A DNA stretch of 33,935 nt. Source: Clostridia bacterium. GTDB taxonomy: Bacteria; Bacillota; Clostridia; RUG12999. The translations under genes and the position numbers were made by a program. The notes under the pieces are model-generated. The model saw nothing but the letters and a program-made list of their open reading frames with translations. It was not told the DNA's origin and did not search any database. Location of the stretch: positions 1 through 33,935 of the forward strand of contig JAAWTG010000032.1 of assembly GCA_022801925.1 (NCBI GenBank). Reading direction: 5' to 3'. The stretch's first letter is position 1, and every line of letters starts with the position of its first letter. Below are positions 2,609 through 31,747 of the stretch, in pieces.

Positions 2609-2661
2609 CATTGGCGGACGGAGTGGGATTCGAACCCACGTGCCGGCGTTATCGACAAACT
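2609..2661 (-). pseudogene. 3'-half remnant of tRNA-Ser(CGA) (att-like repeat, left copy)
   Basis: These 53 nt match 4481-4533 at 50 positions. The match covers the CCA end (2612-2614), acceptor 3' strand, T arm, variable arm and the 3' side of the anticodon arm, then stops abruptly. A copy running from near the anticodon loop to the tRNA 3' end is what tyrosine-recombinase integration into a tRNA gene leaves at the distal end of an element. No 5' half is present, so it cannot make a tRNA. Confidence 0.85.
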
Positions 2662-4456: not shown

Positions 4457-4483
4457 CTTTACTTAGTGCGGTCAAAGCCGCAT

Positions 4484-4575
4484 TGGCGGACGGGGTGGGA
4501 TTCGAACCCACGTGCCGGTGTTACCGACAAACTGATTTCGAGTCAGCCCCGTTATGACCACTTCGATACCCGTCC
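4484..4575 (-). tRNA. tRNA-Ser(CGA), intact
   Basis: Acceptor GGACGGG (4575-4569) pairs with CCCGTCC (4494-4488), followed by discriminator G and an encoded CCA. The anticodon loop CTCGAAA gives CGA, decoding UCG. The long variable arm GTCGGTAACACCGGC is typical of serine tRNA, and the T loop is TTCGAAT. Its 3' half is duplicated at 2609-2661, which marks it as an integration target. Transcription probably comes from the promoter at 4790-4818, through the tRNA-like element. Confidence 0.93.
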
Positions 4576-4888: not shown

Positions 4889-5073
4889 TTGATTTCCCAT
4901 GTAAATCGTGGTATAATAGTCACATAGTGACTATTATACGGATTTGAAAAGTGCCTCCGCCGGTTGCCGCGCATAAAAACGCGGCAACCGGCGGAGATGC
5001 ACGAAATTATACCAGTCCGCGTTGCGGACATGGTATAATAAATGCATAACGACTATTATGCCACGATTTACAT
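4889..5073 (+). repeat. Structured promoter/leader element A (upstream of metG)
   Basis: Promoter TTGATT (4889-4894), 17 bp, TATAAT (4912-4917) with TGG before it. Then a palindrome with 13-nt arms around ATA (4911-4939), a central hairpin closed by GTGC/GCAC with a 17-bp inner stem, loop CATAAAAA and an AT bulge (4951-5002), and a third stem (5006-5039) made of ATTATACCA-GTCCGC and its complement. The ends, 4899-4921 and 5051-5073, are inverted repeats matching at 22 of 23 positions, like a MITE. No clear target duplication is seen. Related copies lie at 14504, 22195 and 31662. It fills most of the metG leader. Confidence 0.85.
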
Positions 5074-9688: not shown

Positions 9689-9998
9689 AAACAGAATAGA
9701 GAAGAAAAGCTAAGATGGAGAGGAGTAGCCGGTGTTTGCTTTGTTTTAGAGAGGAACCGCTATAAGCTGAAAACGGTTCTATCAAAGACGGCGGTGAAGT
9801 TCGCTCCTGAGCTCGCATATTGAAAGAACAGTAGGTATGCGCGGAATTTTCCACGTTACAGGAAAAGGATATCGGTTATGAAAACCTGTATCTGCCAAAC
9901 GAGGGTAGTGTGTGCGCACTGCTGAAATTGGGTGGTACCACGAATTAGAGACCAAAGTCTGTCGTCCCATGTTGTTGCATGGAATGGCGGGCTTTTTT
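9689..9998 (+). promoter_or_regulatory. T-box leader, specifier probably TTC (Phe)
   Basis: Contains the T-box sequence GGGTGGTACCACG (about 9930-9942), which binds the uncharged tRNA acceptor end, followed by a terminator hairpin (9956-9992) and seven T. Stem I shows GGAGAGGAGTAG (about 9717-9728), the distal hairpin GGAACCG...CGGTTC, and the 3' strand TGAAGTTCGCTCC. Pairing GGAG with CTCC places TTC (9800-9802) in the specifier loop, followed by G, as is usual for a purine there; GTT (Val) one base earlier is the alternative. Uncharged tRNA-Phe would then turn on the downstream paaK and ACT genes. Confidence 0.92.
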
Positions 9999-10027
9999 TG
10001 ATGAAGGAAAAGGAGGGAGCAGGCAAA

Positions 10028-11329
10028 ATGTATTGGAACGAAGAAATTGAGTGTATGGACAAAGAACAAATGCGAAAGCTGCAAAGTAAACGCCTGATTG
10101 ATACGGTGAGACGGGTCTATGAAAACGTGCCGTTCTACCGTAAGAAAATGGAAGAAGCGGGTGTGACACCGGAAGATATCCGGTCGGTGGAGGATTTGCA
10201 CAAATTGCCGTTTACGACCAAAATGGATTTGCGTGACAACTATCCGTTTAACACATTTGCCTGTCCGATGGAAGATGTGGTGCGTATCCATGCCTCCAGC
10301 GGCACGACAGGAAAGCAGACGGTTGTCGGATATACGGAGCAAGATTTGGAAGTATGGGCGGAGTGTGTGGCACGCGGCATGACTTCGTTGGGTGTTACCA
10401 AAAAAGACAGAGTGCATGTTTCCTATGGATATGGATTGTTTACTGGCGGACTGGGAGCGCACGGCGGCGCGGAATATTTAGGAGCAACGGTTGTACCGGC
10501 TTCCACAGGTAATACCAGCCGCCAAGTGCAAATGCTGGTGGATTTTCAATCGACTGTGCTATGCTGCACGCCTTCTTATGCGCTGTATATTGCAGATGAA
10601 ATGCAAAAAATGGGAATTACCAAAGACCAGTTGAATTTGAAATTCGGTTGTTTTGGTGCAGAACCATGGACGGAACACATGAGAGCGGAAATTGAGAATA
10701 AATTAGGGCTGGAAGCGCATGATATCTATGGGCTGAGTGAAATCATGGGACCGGGCGTGTCGATGGACTGCACAGAGAAAGACGGATTGCATATCCATGC
10801 AGACCATTTCATTCCGGAAATCATTAACCCCGAAACGGGCGAGGTGTTGCCAGAGGGTGAAAAAGGCGAGCTTGTGTTTACTTGTATCACCAAACAAGCG
10901 CTGCCATTGATTCGCTACCGTACCAAAGATTTGTCCAGATTGACATGGGAAACCTGCGGCTGCGGCAGAACGTTGCCGCGCATGGAAAAAGTAACAGGAC
11001 GCTGCGATGATATGCTCATTATCCGCGGCGTGAACGTGTTCCCGTCGCAAATTGAATCCGTGTTGTTGGAGTACGGACAGGTGGAACCGCATTACATGAT
11101 TTATGTAGACCGCAAAGGACTGCTGGATACAATGGAAGTTCATGTGGAAATGACAGAAGAACTGTTTTCTGATGCAGTGCGTAATATTGAAGCGCAGGAG
11201 AAAAAACTGCGGCAGAGACTGGAATCGGTGCTGGGCATCAGCGCGGCGGTCAAATTAGTAGAACCGCGCAGCATTCCGAGAAGTGAAGGAAAAGCAAAAC
11301 GAGTGATAGATAATCGAAAATTGGTTTAA
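10028..11329 (+). CDS. paaK: Phenylacetate-CoA ligase (arylacetate-CoA ligase)
   Basis: 433 aa from ATG at 10028, which follows AAGGAGGG at a 10-nt distance; the frame opens further upstream but inside the T-box terminator. AMP-forming ligase of the PaaK type: SSGTTGKQT near residue 95 (ATP/AMP loop), [12 protein letters not shown] near 237, YRTKDLSRL near 298 and a C-terminal lid with [14 protein letters not shown]. It converts phenylacetate, or a similar arylacetate, plus CoA and ATP to the thioester. In anaerobes such ligases can work with indolepyruvate ferredoxin oxidoreductase to rebuild aromatic amino acids from arylacetates; control by a Phe-type T-box fits this role. No iorAB is in the window. 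Paired with the ACT gene 15 bp downstream. Confidence 0.92.
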
Positions 11330-12149: not shown

Positions 12150-14480
12150 TCATTCATTTCCGTCTGCCTCGCAAAGCGGTTTCATTTCTTTTAAACTGTC
12201 CCAAAGCATAACCTTAACTTTGCTGTTTGTATTAAAATTTTGCGGAGATACAGCGGGATTTTCACCTTTTACAAACTGTATATTCTGTGCATGAATGGCT
12301 AATAATTTGCCATTATCATACGCAGCAAAAATGACCGTATATAAGCCGTCTTGCGGAACGGTTATAACAGCTTTTTCGTTTTCGTACGTTATGTTATAAT
12401 CATATTTAGGATTCGGTGCAAGAATGATAATTGTCACATTGCCGTATTGTGATGTATAAGTTACCGAGCCATTTTCTGTTTCAGTAGGTTCGATTTTTAA
12501 GTCCTCTGTCCATACTGTTGTATCTGTTAAAATCGGCAAGTCAATAGTATCCTTATGTGTATTATCATTTTCACAAATATGCTCTGCCTTTCCGGTCATG
12601 CTAAATGTCGGCTCTGCGGTAATCATCCAAGCGCCCCAACGATGATGTAGCTTTGGTATTATCGTTTGCGCTGTAATAACCGTATTACATACGCTGCAAT
12701 GACTGCCTGCTGTTTTGCCGTCTGTTTCACAAGTAGGCGCAATTGCTGTGTCTGTTACTTCCGTATGTCCTGTTGCGGTTGTGATTGGAATTTCCGCAAT
12801 TTCTATCAAACCGTTTGCGTCCGAGAACATTTTATGGCAAGCGTCTGTACCTTCGCATTTCCAATATTCGCCGGTACCTGTTTTTGTACAAGTTGCAGCT
12901 ACTGCTGCATGATGTACAAGTGTATGTGTATGCGTTTCAACCGTTTCTCCCACTTTATATTTATCATCAACACGGACTTTTATCCGCATTGACGGACTGC
13001 TGTCGTCCAATACCTCTATTGATATTCCGCTTTCTACTGTTTGCGGGTGACAATCTTCCGACAATGAACATTTTTCGCCCGGTAATCTTGTGATATGAAA
13101 ATTAGAGTTTGGCGTTGTTTCAGAATTGAAGGTATTTCTGCCGTCCTTATTCAAATAAGCCCATGAGTAGTCATACGCACTTTTGTTATTGCTTTGCTCT
13201 ATACTGATAAATGGGTGCATTTTGGCTTCGTTGTTATGCTTACTGTACCCAACGTTTTCATCAATATGCCATATGATAACTCCGCCGTTAAAAAGATTAT
13301 CATATGGGTACTTAGCCATGATATTTAAGCATTCCAAGCCTTTATCAAAGCCTGTAAGCTGGCGATTTTCGATAAGGAAATACTGTTTGGGATCAGCTTT
13401 GCTCTGTACTTTGATTACGTTATATTTACTGTTCATTCCCATATCGGAAATACTATTTATAGTTCCGTCCCAATTGTTTACAAGCGTGGGCGTTATAAAA
13501 CCGCATTGCATTTTACACCACGGATCTAAATGTGTCGGTACATGTCCTGTACATTGTGCATAAGGGTCATCATAGTGTTTATCTCTGTCGGTATAGTCAA
13601 ACCGTCTTCCACTGTTGCCGTTTGCCATAAGGGTATACTTATTATCAGCCCCCATTGCTTTTTGAAAATACAAATCAGGGAGATTAAAAACAGAATGTCC
13701 AAGTTCATGGCAAATAGTACCAATACCGTAGGGAATATCTAAAGAATACATTTCAGGCTGAACGGTATATCTGTTGAGACTTATACCGCCCGGAGTTTTT
13801 ATACCGGAGCCGGATGTGAAACCTCGGATATGTCCTTTTCCTGCTGTCCCTTGTGCTATTAATTCCCCATATCCTGCGAATATTGTTACAATATATGGAT
13901 TTTCAACTGTAAAGTCGAAATTTTCCTCCATAGCGCCTGCTACCATCATAACCACTTTATGCAAGTCGTTGCTTTTCGCATCACCTGTCGGAGAGGGATG
14001 CGGAATATCAAGTGAAATCCTGACAACACCATCGCGGCATTCTGAAATTTCATATGGAATATGAGTGTAGTCACTATAGCTTACAGTACCTTTGCCACCC
14101 GTATTGACACTTGAAGTATCGGCAGGCTCAAAAATATCCAAACCGTTTGAATTTTCTTTCCAATAATTCACAACACTGAGCTTGCCGGGCGTTATATCAA
14201 ACATTTCCTTATTCCAAAATTCACTGTCCATTGTAATTTTAACATCATTAAATTCTATTAAAATTGCAAGCAGTTTCTGATGTGTAAGCGGTTTTTGTTG
14301 TTTGGCTTCGGTTGAAAAAAGTGCAATATCGGTATCACCGATGAACTGTACACAGCCCGTCTGCGGAATCATGAATTCATCAAATGACGAAAAAATCGGT
14401 GCGGCAACTGCTGTATTTCCAAACAATAAAATAAACGCAAGACTTAACATTGTCAATAGCGAAATCTGTTTCTTTTTCAT
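12150..14480 (-). CDS. Secreted M6-like metalloprotease with Cys-rich repeats
   Basis: 776 aa. A classical signal peptide (KKKQ, hydrophobic 8-22, AVAA cut near 29) sends it out. The zinc motif HELGHSVFNLPDLY (near residue 258) is the HExxH with downstream Pro-Asp of the M6/immune-inhibitor-A group. IENRQLTGFDKGL and GGVIIWHIDE also fit M6 proteins. From about 520 to 690 there are repeats with paired cysteines and histidines (ATCTKTGTGEYWKCEG, PTCETDGKTAGSHCSVCNTV, AEHICENDNTHKD), a pattern common in clostridial surface proteins. A small beta domain ends the protein; no LPXTG or SLH anchor is visible. AAGGAGGGG precedes the ATG. Promoter element B lies directly upstream. Probably degrades extracellular protein; substrate unknown. 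Confidence 0.85.
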   Translation of the reverse strand: MKKKQISLLTMLSLAFILLFGNTAVAAPIFSSFDEFMIPQTGCVQFIGDTDIALFSTEAKQQKPLTHQKLLAILIEFNDVKITMDSEFWNKEMFDITPGKLSVVNYWKENSNGLDIFEPADTSSVNTGGKGTVSYSDYTHIPYEISECRDGVVRISLDIPHPSPTGDAKSNDLHKVVMMVAGAMEENFDFTVENPYIVTIFAGYGELIAQGTAGKGHIRGFTSGSGIKTPGGISLNRYTVQPEMYSLDIPYGIGTICHELGHSVFNLPDLYFQKAMGADNKYTLMANGNSGRRFDYTDRDKHYDDPYAQCTGHVPTHLDPWCKMQCGFITPTLVNNWDGTINSISDMGMNSKYNVIKVQSKADPKQYFLIENRQLTGFDKGLECLNIMAKYPYDNLFNGGVIIWHIDENVGYSKHNNEAKMHPFISIEQSNNKSAYDYSWAYLNKDGRNTFNSETTPNSNFHITRLPGEKCSLSEDCHPQTVESGISIEVLDDSSPSMRIKVRVDDKYKVGETVETHTHTLVHHAAVAATCTKTGTGEYWKCEGTDACHKMFSDANGLIEIAEIPITTATGHTEVTDTAIAPTCETDGKTAGSHCSVCNTVITAQTIIPKLHHRWGAWMITAEPTFSMTGKAEHICENDNTHKDTIDLPILTDTTVWTEDLKIEPTETENGSVTYTSQYGNVTIIILAPNPKYDYNITYENEKAVITVPQDGLYTVIFAAYDNGKLLAIHAQNIQFVKGENPAVSPQNFNTNSKVKVMLWDSLKEMKPLCEADGNE

Positions 14481-14503: not shown

Positions 14504-14638
14504 GGTATGAAAAAATACAATTTCGTGCATCTTCGTCGGTTGCCGCGTTCTTATGCGCGGCTTTGGCGGAGGCACTTTCGATTCCGTATTAATATACGCC
14601 TTGTGTATATATTATACCATGTTTTGCATACATTTCAA
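14504..14638 (-). repeat. Structured promoter/leader element B (upstream of M6 protease)
   Basis: Read on the minus strand: TTGAAA (14638-14633), 16 bp, TATAAT (14616-14611) with TGG before it, then a hairpin closed by GTGC/GCAC (14575-14525) with loop CATAAGAA, an AT bulge before GCAC, and the box GAAATTGTA. It aligns with element A over most of its length, but the third stem is missing and the inner stem has mismatches. Orientation relative to the downstream gene is the same as in A, C and D. The rest of the 14481-14857 gap holds only the terminator at 14791. Confidence 0.8.
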
Positions 14639-18308: not shown

Positions 18309-18337
18309 TTGAAAAGAATATGTTTTCATGGTATAAT
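18309..18337 (+). promoter_or_regulatory. Promoter of the small membrane protein gene
   Basis: TTGAAA (18309-18314), 17 bp, TATAAT (18332-18337) preceded by TGG. CATGGTATAATAGTC matches the ends of elements A and C, so this may be a promoter-only relic of that family. Confidence 0.75.
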
Positions 18338-18379
18338 AGTCGCAAATAAGAATGTACAAAAAGGGGTGGGGTGTTTCAA

Positions 18380-19944: not shown

Positions 19945-22131
19945 TTAGAACCGTGTGTGGAACGTACGGTTGATAACATCAAGCTGCTGTTCGCGCGTCA
20001 ATTTAATAAAATTGACGGCATAACCGGATACGCGGATAGTAAGCTGTGGATACAGTTCCGGATGGTCCATTGCGTCCAGCAAAACTTCTTTGTTCAAAAC
20101 GTTGACATTAATATGATGTCCCGTTTCTTTAAAATAACCGTCCAGCAGATTTGCCAAATTCACAATTTTTTCGTCTTTGGATTTACCCAATGCTTCCGGT
20201 ACAATGGAGAAGGTATAAGAGATTCCATCTTCACTGTAGTCATAGGGCAATTTGGCAACCGATTTCATGGAAGCAACGCAGCCGTGACTGTCGCGCCCAT
20301 GCATGGGATTTGCGCCGGGCGCGAACGGTTCACCCGCTTTACGTCCATCCGGCGAATTTCCTGTTTTTTTACCATAAACAACATTAGATGTAATTGTCAA
20401 AATGGAAAGCGTGGGTTTGGAATTGCGGTAGGTGTGGTTATTTTCCAGCTTTTTCATAAAGTTTTCAACAATGTCCATCGCCAGCCGGTCTACGCGTTCA
20501 TCGTTGTTTCCAAACGCCGGATATTCGCCTTCAATTGCATAGTCCACAATCAGTCCGTCCTCGTTGCGAATTGCTTTCACTTTTGCATATTTAATGGCCG
20601 CCAAGCTGTCTGCAACAACAGACAGTCCTGCAATGCCGCAGGCAGAAGTCCGCAGAATCTTTTCATCATGCAGCGCCATCTGAATGCGTTCATAGCAATA
20701 TTTATCGTGCATATAGTGAATCACATTCAGCGTATTGATATAGAGTTCACTCAGCCAGTTGCAAATTTTGTCGAATTTACCCCAGACGTCGTCAAAATCA
20801 AGATAATCTCCCTGAACAGGTTCGCTGACCGGCGCGATTTGTTCGCCAGTTTTTTCGTCTTTTCCGCCGTTAATAGCATAGAGCAATGCTTTTGCTAAGT
20901 TCGCACGAGCACCGAAGAACTGCATTTGTTTGCCGATTTCCATTGCGGAAACACAGCAAGCAATACCATAGTCGTCACCGAATTTTGCGCGCATCAGTTC
21001 ATCATTTTCATATTGAATGGAAGAGGTTTCAATAGAGATACGGCTGCAAAAATTCTTGAAGTTTTGCGGCAGGCTGGGGGACCACAGAATGGTCAGATTG
21101 GGTTCCGGTGCGGGACCTAAATTTACCAGCGTATGCAGAAAACGGTAGGACATCTTGGTGACCATGTGACGACCGTCCAGACACATCCCGCCGATGGATT
21201 CTGTGACCCAAGTCGGGTCGCCGGAGAACAGTTCATCATAGGAGGGGGTACGCAGAAACCGTACCATACGCAGTTTCATAATGAAATGGTCAACGAACTC
21301 CTGAATTTCTTCTTCGGTATATTTGCCGCTGTTTAGGTCTTTTTCCGCATAGATATCCAAAAACGTGGAAATACGGCCAATAGACATAGCGGCGCCGTTT
21401 TGTTCTTTGACTGCTGCCAAATAGCCAAAATAAACCCATTGAATCGCTTCTTTGGTATCCTGCGCAGGCGCTGAAATATCATAACCATATTTGGCTGCCA
21501 TTTCTTTGAGTTCGCCAAGCGCGCGGATTTGTTCCGCCATTTCTTCAATTTCGCGTGTTTTGTTGCCATCAATGCGCCCTTTGGAATGCGCATCTTTCGC
21601 TTTCTTTTTCTGCTCAATTAAGAAATCAACACCATAGAGCGCTACGCGGCGATAGTCGCCAATGATACGCCCGCGTCCATAAGCGTCCGGCAGACCGGTG
21701 ATAACGCCGGTATGGCGCGCTTTACGCATTTCTTCGCTATAAACATCAAATACGCCGTCATTGTGCGTTTTGCGATATTTGAAAATATCCTCTACGCGCG
21801 GATCCATTTCCTTACCATATGCTGCCAAAGAGGAACGAACCATACGGATTCCGCCAAACGGCATAATGGCACGTTTGAGCGGCGCATTTGTTTGAAGACC
21901 GACAATATCTTCCAACGCTTTATCAATATAACCGGCATCGTGGGCAGTGATGGTGGAAATGGTTTTTTCATCAATATCCAACACACCGCCGGCTTTGGTT
22001 TCCTGCTGCATGAGGTCTTTCACTTTACCCCAAAGTTTTTGTGTTTTTTCCGTCGGCGAAGCGAGAAAACTGTCGTCTCCGTCATACGGTGTGTAATTGT
22101 CTACGATAAAATCTCTGACACGAATTTCCAT
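19945..22131 (-). CDS. pflB: Formate C-acetyltransferase (pyruvate formate-lyase)
   Basis: 728 aa. Cleaves pyruvate with CoA to acetyl-CoA and formate. The catalytic cysteine pair is in [12 protein letters not shown] (about 400), and the C-terminal glycyl-radical motif is RVSGYAVNF near residue 706. Length is close to that of other family members. The gene is followed by pflA, the normal two-gene operon. Element C fills most of the upstream region and contains the likely promoter. This and malic enzyme place anaerobic pyruvate metabolism at this locus. Confidence 0.98.
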
Positions 22132-22194: not shown

Positions 22195-22345
22195 TATATG
22201 ACTATTATACCATGTCCGCAGCGCGGACTGGTATAATTTTGCGCATCGCCGGTTTCGAGCGAAGCGATGAAACAATTCGGCGGCGCTTTTTATTCTATAA
22301 TAGTCACCATATGACTATTATACCATAGTTTCTGTTTCCTGCCTA
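22195..22345 (-). repeat. Structured promoter/leader element C (upstream of pflB)
   Basis: Read on the minus strand: TAGGCA (22345-22340), 17 bp, TATAAT (22322-22317) with TGG; a palindrome with 11-nt arms (TATAATAGTCA); a central hairpin closed by GCGC/GCGC (22286-22241) with the AT bulge kept; then the third stem (22237-22204), nearly identical to that of element A (ATTATACCAGTCCGC with one loop change). The inner hairpin sequence is quite different from A although its position and shape are the same. A second extended -10 box lies at the gene-proximal end. Confidence 0.85.
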
Positions 22346-24063: not shown

Positions 24064-24148
24064 GCAAAGGTGGCGGAACCGGCAGACGCGCACGTTTGAG
24101 GGGCGTGTGGAGCAATCCATGGGGGTTCAAGTCCCCTCCTTTGCACCA
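24064..24148 (+). tRNA. tRNA-Leu(GAG)
   Basis: Acceptor GCAAAGG (24064-24070) pairs with CCTTTGC (24138-24144), discriminator A, encoded CCA. The anticodon loop TTGAGGG gives GAG, decoding CUU/CUC. The variable arm is the leucine type, and the T loop is TTCAAGT. Its 3' end and terminator are duplicated 200 bp downstream. Confidence 0.95.
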
Positions 24149-24213
24149 GGAAGTTCTTGCAGCGAAGCTGCAGGAACTTTTTTATAAAAAGAGGGACTTG
24201 AAGGCTAAGAGGG
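24131..24213 (+). repeat. tRNA-Leu 3' end plus terminator, repeat copy 1
   Basis: The tRNA 3' strand (GTCCCCTCCTTTGC) and the following sequence, including the terminator GTTCTTGCAGC-GAA-GCTGCAGGAAC with six T (24153-24183) and GAGGGACTTGAAGGC, recur almost unchanged at 24330-24413. The terminator presumably ends the tRNA-Leu transcript. Confidence 0.85.
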
Positions 24214-24329
24214 CACGAGAGCGGAGAGGAAGGTTGCCGGTGGCAAGCTTCCAGCGAACGTGGTGCGCAGGCGGGCACCATGCCGAAGGGTATGGTCGCC
24301 GAGCAATGCGAATTGCGGGAGCAAGGCGC

Positions 24330-24413
24330 GTCCCCTCCTTTGCTACCGGAAAGTTCTTGCAGCGAAGCTGCAGGAACTTTTTTATAAAAAGAGGGACTTG
24401 AAGGCCAAGAGGG
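24330..24413 (+). repeat. tRNA-Leu 3' end plus terminator, repeat copy 2 (remnant)
   Basis: Second copy, offset by 199-200 bp, carrying 14 nt of the tRNA 3' strand (GTCCCCTCCTTTGC) then TACC in place of ACCA. There is no tRNA body in front of it. A third, shorter piece (24646-24702: GTTCC-ACA-GGAAC, six T, GGACTTGAAGGCTAAG) lies just before the radical SAM gene. The gene-free stretch 24149-24736 is otherwise low-value sequence with the faint similarity to 18640-18956 described there. Confidence 0.8.
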
Positions 24414-24736
24414 AACTACGTCGGAACAGACTTTGCTTCGTTCCGATTTTTGTTTGCACAAAAATCAGTCGCATGCTCCGTCGTTCCTCCTTTTTCGAAA
24501 AAGGTCACGCCAAGTCGCTCGGCGCACTTACCTATGCCCTGAAGAGGTATAAACGCGTTCGCTGGCGCTTTGTTGGCTACTAGCCTTTTTCGGGTTTGCG
24601 CGCTTCGCGTATTTGAAAGTCCTTGGTTTTGCTGTGTTCTCGATAAGTTCCACAGGAACTTTTTTATAAAAAATGGACTTGAAGGCTAAGAAGGCACGAG
24701 ATATCATTTGCAAAAGAAGTATATGAGGTGGATATC

Positions 24737-31635: not shown

Positions 31636-31661
31636 GCCGCTTTCTGACCTTTCTGTTTTTT

Positions 31662-31747
31662 GGTATCATTTCGTGCATCTCTGCCGACCCGCGCACGCAT
31701 ATACGCCTTTTCCAATATATTATATCGAAAAACGTACGTTTGTTCAA
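31662..31747 (-). repeat. Structured promoter/leader element D (upstream of recD2), degenerate
   Basis: Read on the minus strand: TTGAAC (31747-31742), 17 bp, TATAAT (31724-31719); the outer stem GTGC/GCAC (31696-31673) with the AT bulge; then the box GAAATGATACC, the same closing sequence as in A and B. The inner hairpin is much reduced. Shortest and most decayed copy, same orientation relative to its gene as the others. No terminator or other gene is seen in 31636-31843. Confidence 0.7.

What the first reader, a model, noticed from the sequence alone, without database searches (positions are those of the whole stretch)
4951..5002. Paired base changes keep the outer stem and AT bulge of the central hairpin
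In A, B and D the outer stem is GTGC with GCAC; in C both sides have changed together to GCGC with GCGC, and the AT bulge before the 3' strand is present in all four. The inner stem is wholly different in C (CGCCG...CGGCG, GTTTC/GAAAC) but still closes, while A has a 17-bp perfect stem. Keeping shape while the sequence changes is the mark of selection on RNA structure. With only four copies the evidence is thin, and DNA palindromes can also be kept by gene conversion or hairpin-dependent transposition.
Basis: partly seen in the sequence, partly recalled or inferred. Interest (0 to 1): 0.7.

Follow-up and report, generated by a model that had tools for sequence, protein, structure and literature searches.

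The report
Hairpin mobile element inserts into promoters
The paired hairpin changes are real, but they belong to a small gene-less repeat, found about 40 times per genome in one genus of gut Clostridia, that inserts into the -10 box of gene promoters and duplicates it, so the hairpins ride in mRNA leaders as passengers rather than as evident gene switches.

Summary
The four copies are part of a genus-wide family of about 125-bp, gene-less, palindromic repeats: 118 copies in DNA from three genomes, with two hairpin types (T1 = A, B; T2 = C). Within T1 the paired changes are statistically real (0 of 500 shuffles; 5 of the 11 best-covarying column pairs are base pairs), but they lie in the middle and inner stems. 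D is a decayed copy whose GTGC is not the homologous strand. The copies sit in sigma-A promoters: 35 of 58 unique left ends have a native -35 at the right spacing (about 15% expected), against 1 of 44 right ends. Five orthologous sites in sister species lack the element; in four it lies between two copies of the native -10 region (9-18 bp, one copy diverged). The strand bias follows from the promoter target. Some palindrome arms copy unique native flank, the footprint of template switching, and G-U does not exceed A-C. No Rfam family and no IS4, IS256 or Y1 transposase was found. Distant Oscillospiraceae relatives keep the AT bulge and internal loop while stems covary.

The parts
4889..4894 (+). 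native -35 hexamer TTGATT of the metG promoter, outside the element
   Evidence: scan: TTGATT-17-TATAAT, 10/12, with TG before the -10
4909..4918 (+). left copy of the duplicated -10 region, TGGTATAATA
   Evidence: sequence; left/right ends correlated within elements
4912..4938 (+). left palindrome TATAATAGTCAC-ATA-GTGACTATTATA
4951..5002 (+). copy A, T1 central hairpin with AT bulge (the finding)
   Evidence: model R1 hit 4948-5010
5005..5040 (+). right palindrome AATTATACCA-GTCCGC..GCGGAC-ATGGTATAATA, ending in the right copy of the duplicated -10 region (5031-5040)
5051..5073 (-). inverted copy (22 of 23 bp) of the native left flank plus -10 box (4899-4921)
14517..14578 (-). copy B, T1 hairpin upstream of the M6 metalloprotease gene 12150-14480; native -35 TTGAAA 14638-14633, -10 14616-14611; right end lost
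22203..22325 (-). copy C, complete T2 element upstream of pflB (19945-22131); left -10 22322-22317, right -10 22209-22204
31661..31747 (-). copy D, decayed T1 remnant in the recD2 promoter (TTGAAC 31747-31742, 17 bp, TATAAT 31724-31719); 5' half of the hairpin deleted
18309..18349 (+). empty site: intact promoter TTGAAA-17-TATAAT without element; the orthologous site in sister species G001 carries a T1 element

Best explanation
The hairpins are the cores of a family of small (about 125 bp), non-autonomous, MITE-like palindromic elements that have spread in one genus of gut Clostridia. An element enters the -10 box of a sigma-A promoter and ends up between two copies of that box (usually about 9-11 bp, TGNTATAATA). 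The native -35 plus the left -10 copy still form a promoter, so the element becomes the start of the mRNA leader, read mostly in one orientation because the target has an orientation. Further units join at the duplicated box, giving tandem and mosaic arrays. The paired changes arise as subfamilies diversify, mostly as multi-base blocks; replication template switching between arms probably makes many of them, and the fold itself is probably also kept because the mobilising machinery reads it as single-stranded DNA or RNA. Shown: copy number, promoter position, empty sites, duplication, covariation. Inferred: transposition by a machinery in trans, template switching as source of the paired changes, continued promoter activity, function of the bulge.
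For: About 40 copies per genome in three congeneric genomes, many T2 copies in G002 with the top score; no full-length match outside the genus in 148 relatives. Unique left ends: -35 match of 4/6 or better at 16-18 bp in 35/58, about 15% when shuffled, 1/44 at right ends. Five empty orthologous sites: window 18309-18349, L248, L279 (TGCTATAAT duplicated), L275, L267. Left and right -4..-1 bases agree within elements beyond permutation (p = 0.0005). Deduplicated context: 19 divergent against 6 convergent gaps (p = 0.015), codirectional sense 16 against antisense 7 (p = 0.09). Inner arms match the individual native flank (p = 0.0002), with 5-9 bp extensions in L150, L153, L177, L221; a 23-bp inverted copy of native flank at metG. 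TC to GGTT in copy A is the exact complement of the opposite AACC. Module turnover at the same site between species.
Against: No transposase with matching ends was found; IS4 (PF01609), IS256 (PF00872) and Y1 (PF01797) families are absent in all three genomes, and most of each genome was not read. The duplication length varies (9-11 bp for T1, 18 bp in a composite), and one empty site has a weak -10, so a single clean rule is not proven. In most elements the bases after the left and right box differ. An empty site could in principle be a deletion between the repeats. Extension of arm 2 into native flank is not significant over all elements (p = 0.49). About a quarter of loci are not upstream in sense.
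Confidence: 0.68

Rival explanations
1. A cis-regulatory RNA in the 5' leaders of metG, pflB and other genes, kept by selection on RNA structure.
For: Covariation within T1; sense orientation in most loci; promoter directly upstream; AT bulge, TC/AACC loop and outer stem kept in distant copies while stems change; one distant copy lies in a valS leader.
Against: Unrelated downstream genes; empty sites and module swaps between sister species at the same gene; inverted copies at metG in G002; no G-U excess; no covariation and broken outer stem in T2; no Rfam match.
Confidence: 0.12
2. No dedicated machinery: the element spreads by recombination or template switching between natural TGNTATAATA promoter sequences and the same sequence at its ends.
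For: Shared TATAATA at both ends and at every tandem junction; inverted copies of native flank; no transposase of three families found.
Against: The 18-bp perfect duplication of a non-consensus target (ATGATACAATAAATACAG) exceeds the homology with element ends; relatives in other families have another kind of target.
Confidence: 0.15
3. Mobile element recognised as a folded single strand, as in IS200/IS605, REP or integron attC systems, the asymmetric AT bulge marking the strand.
For: Conserved bulge and internal loop with covarying stems; inner arms complementary to the target.
Against: No Y1 transposase in any of the three genomes; REP/IS200 insertion makes no target duplication (own knowledge); integron integrase not searched.
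Confidence: 0.2

Closest known systems
BOX elements of Streptococcus pneumoniae (PMC3049150)
   Same: short interspersed palindromic mosaic of modules, strong predicted RNA fold, co-transcribed with neighbours, presumed non-autonomous
   Different: BOX sequences were not compared here; the site here is the -10 box of promoters, the unit is bounded by TATAATA direct repeats, and the host is a Clostridia genus
MITEs in general (Nezha, Correia, RUP)
   Same: no gene, palindromic ends, high copy number, target duplication, proposed trans-mobilisation
   Different: target is a functional promoter element at a fixed register and mostly one orientation; no parent transposase found
Template-switch origin of compensatory changes (PMC8794818)
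   Same: multi-base paired changes and arms copied from the opposite strand
   Different: described for RNA genes; here inside a mobile repeat and reaching into its target flank

Membership tests
MITE / miniature non-autonomous transposable element | short, gene-less, many dispersed copies | tested here: met
   118 cores of about 60 bp within units of about 125 bp in DNA from three genomes
MITE / miniature non-autonomous transposable element | inverted-repeat ends | tested here: met
   both halves fold on each other and each end is itself a palindrome
MITE / miniature non-autonomous transposable element | target site duplication at insertion | tested here: met
   empty/filled pairs with duplicated -10 region; length varies, one right copy diverged
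MITE / miniature non-autonomous transposable element | transposase with matching ends in the host | tested here: inconclusive
   IS4, IS256, Y1 families absent; no multi-copy transposase-like gene in the part of the genomes read; other families not searched
REP / IS200-IS605 (Y1 transposase) | Y1_Tnp gene in the genome | tested here: not met
   0 of 3 genomes, control genomes positive
Rfam RNA family / known riboswitch or leader | match above gathering score | tested here: not met
   no match over the elements
cis-regulatory RNA | conserved association with the same gene across species | tested here: not met
   empty or replaced at orthologous genes
BOX element | sequence match to boxA/boxB/boxC | not tested
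   no BOX sequence was compared
integron cassette / attC | attC consensus and integron integrase | not tested
   no search was made

The most novel reading that the evidence does not exclude
A previously undescribed class of bacterial element that uses the open promoter complex as target: it enters the melted -10 region, duplicates it and so restores the promoter, and carries a hairpin with a conserved AT bulge read as a single strand by its machinery.
Probability: 0.22. Interest if true: 0.8.

Novelty: new variant of a known kind. Interest (0 to 1): 0.56.

Why it matters
It shows a repeat that spreads by settling in promoters without evidently destroying them, adding a strongly folded leader to dozens of genes. 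It is also a clean natural case in which covariation, the usual proof of a functional RNA, can come from mobile DNA and replication template switching, a warning for RNA motif discovery in metagenomes.

Tried and rejected
A loose regular expression gave mostly noise. Plasmid and phage collections held no match to the full element; the viral-contig hits were a chance match in a coding gene and 15-mers without the hairpin. G122 match judged chance. A general extension of the left palindrome arm into native flank was tested and is not significant. Purifying selection on unpaired against paired columns: lower diversity when unpaired (0.11 against 0.20) but not significant (p = 0.14). Literature searches on insertion into promoters gave nothing relevant.

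Full report
What the finding is. They are copies of a dispersed repeat. DNA search of the window's own genome (2.95 Mb, 96 contigs) gives dozens of matches, two congeneric genomes hold as many, and covariance models built here for the two hairpin types (T1: A, B and the remnant D; T2: C) find them in all three. A profile scan of the DNA fetched around them gives 118 cores: 41, 40 and 37 in G000, G001 and G002. Among 148 relatives no genome outside the genus has a comparable set. Contig names and lengths match G001 and G002 to uncultured Clostridia MAGs CAMNSU01 and CATIYX01 (iMGMC-479).

Anatomy. A complete unit is TGNTATAATA - palindrome (GTCAC or TACGC arms, 3-5 nt loop) - linker ending AAAA - central hairpin - GAAATTATACCA - small variable hairpin - ATGGTATAATA. 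Units occur in tandem and join at TATAATA. Copy A folds with z = -13.9 over the whole unit.

The observation. A and C are as described; B has two mismatches; D lacks the 5' half and its GTGC is not homologous. The outer-stem change is one difference between T1 and T2. In T1 the outer pairs show only G-U or broken cells; in T2 pair 5-52 is broken in 4 of 9 distinct rows. The middle and inner stems of T1 covary strongly, and base pairs are 5 of the top 11 of all column pairs by corrected mutual information, a control that includes shared ancestry. Changes come in blocks: pairs 23-35 and 24-34 mostly change together. In copy A (and L046) a TC is replaced by GGTT, the exact complement of the AACC opposite, turning an internal loop into a perfect stem.

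Where the copies sit. For 58 non-redundant left ends the DNA upstream of TATAAT is unique to each locus, yet T, T, G are the commonest bases at -23, -22 and -21 (44, 39 and 33 of 58); 35 match TTGACA in 4 or more positions at a spacer of 16-18, against about 15% after shuffling and 1 of 44 at right ends. All four window copies follow: metG TTGATT-17, M6 protease TTGAAA-16, recD2 TTGAAC-17, pflB weak (TAGGCA-17). After removal of orthologous duplicates, 19 units lie in divergent and 6 in convergent gaps (p = 0.015), and 16 against 7 are sense in codirectional gaps (p = 0.09).

Insertion. Five orthologous sites without the unit were found. Window 18309-18349 is an intact promoter (TTGAAA-17-TATAAT) where G001 has a T1 unit. 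L248 lacks a composite present in L226, and ATGATACAATAAATACAG is duplicated exactly. L279 reads TTGTGCTATAATGGGTGAC; the filled site reads TTGTGCTATAAT-unit-ATGCTATAATGAGTGAC, a 9-bp duplication. L275 and L267 are further cases; in L275 the right copy has diverged, and in L267 the native -10 is weak. Within elements the bases just before the left and right box agree more than permuted pairs (p = 0.0005). At the same gene, sister species carry different modules (metG, M6 protease, L177/L170/L225).

Why paired changes need not mean a leader RNA. G-U cells (28) do not exceed A-C cells (18) significantly (p = 0.18) and both occur at about as many pairs (13 and 12), although selection on the transcribed strand alone should favour G-U. 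Inner arms agree with the particular native flank of their own locus (p = 0.0002), with runs of 5-9 bp in L150, L153, L177 and L221, and at metG a 23-bp inverted copy of native flank lies right of the unit. Copies of unique flank cannot come from selection on an element RNA; they are what replication template switching makes, a mechanism shown to create compensatory changes (PMC8794818). It is not general: arm 2 shows no overall effect. I therefore hold template switching to be a probable, not proven, main source.

Constraint on the fold. A pattern search over 391 Clostridia genomes found one more bearer, G042, whose single copy lies between a T-box and valS. BLAST then found relatives on secondary replicons of Vescimonas fastidiosa (88% over 90 bp) and Pusillibacter faecalis (75%, decayed). 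In G042 and Vescimonas the outer stem, AT bulge, TC/AACC loop and the palindrome with AAA loop are kept while several middle and inner pairs differ on both sides; the joint alignment again beats all shuffles. So the fold with its unpaired bases is older than the genus and probably matters, most simply for mobilisation. In G042 and P. faecalis the unit follows a terminator, so the promoter target may belong to this genus.

What is not known. No mobilising enzyme: Y1, IS4 and IS256 families are absent and no multi-copy transposase-like gene appeared in the DNA read. Whether leaders are transcribed or affected was not testable. No description of an element with this target was found in the papers searched.

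Noticed in passing
window 9703-9972 (+): T-box leader (Rfam RF00230, 105 bits) before a phenylacetate--CoA ligase-like gene (9932-11329), an unusual target for a T-box
   Followed up: no
L226:9900-10280, L146:15894-16281, L225, L170: Other repeated palindromic modules (TTTTCCAAGAAGGGATTC.., AGTTTTCTCGAAAGGGGGAC.., AGGAGGTTCCTCGTCGGGATACGACTCGGAAC..) join the T1/T2 units; several join at the same TATAATA boundary, suggesting a wider set of units in this genus
   Followed up: partly
G001 C15, C35; G002 C70, C82, C251, C291: Many assembly contigs end inside these repeats, so true copy numbers are probably higher and long arrays are lost
   Followed up: no
window 24145-24701: Direct repeat family of 42-81 bp with spacing 200 and 281 downstream of a tRNA gene (24064-24145)
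   Followed up: no
window 2609-2661 and 4481-4533: Duplicated tRNA 3' region (94% over 53 bp, spacing 1872), with a phage-repressor-like gene at 125-775; possible integration scar
   Followed up: no
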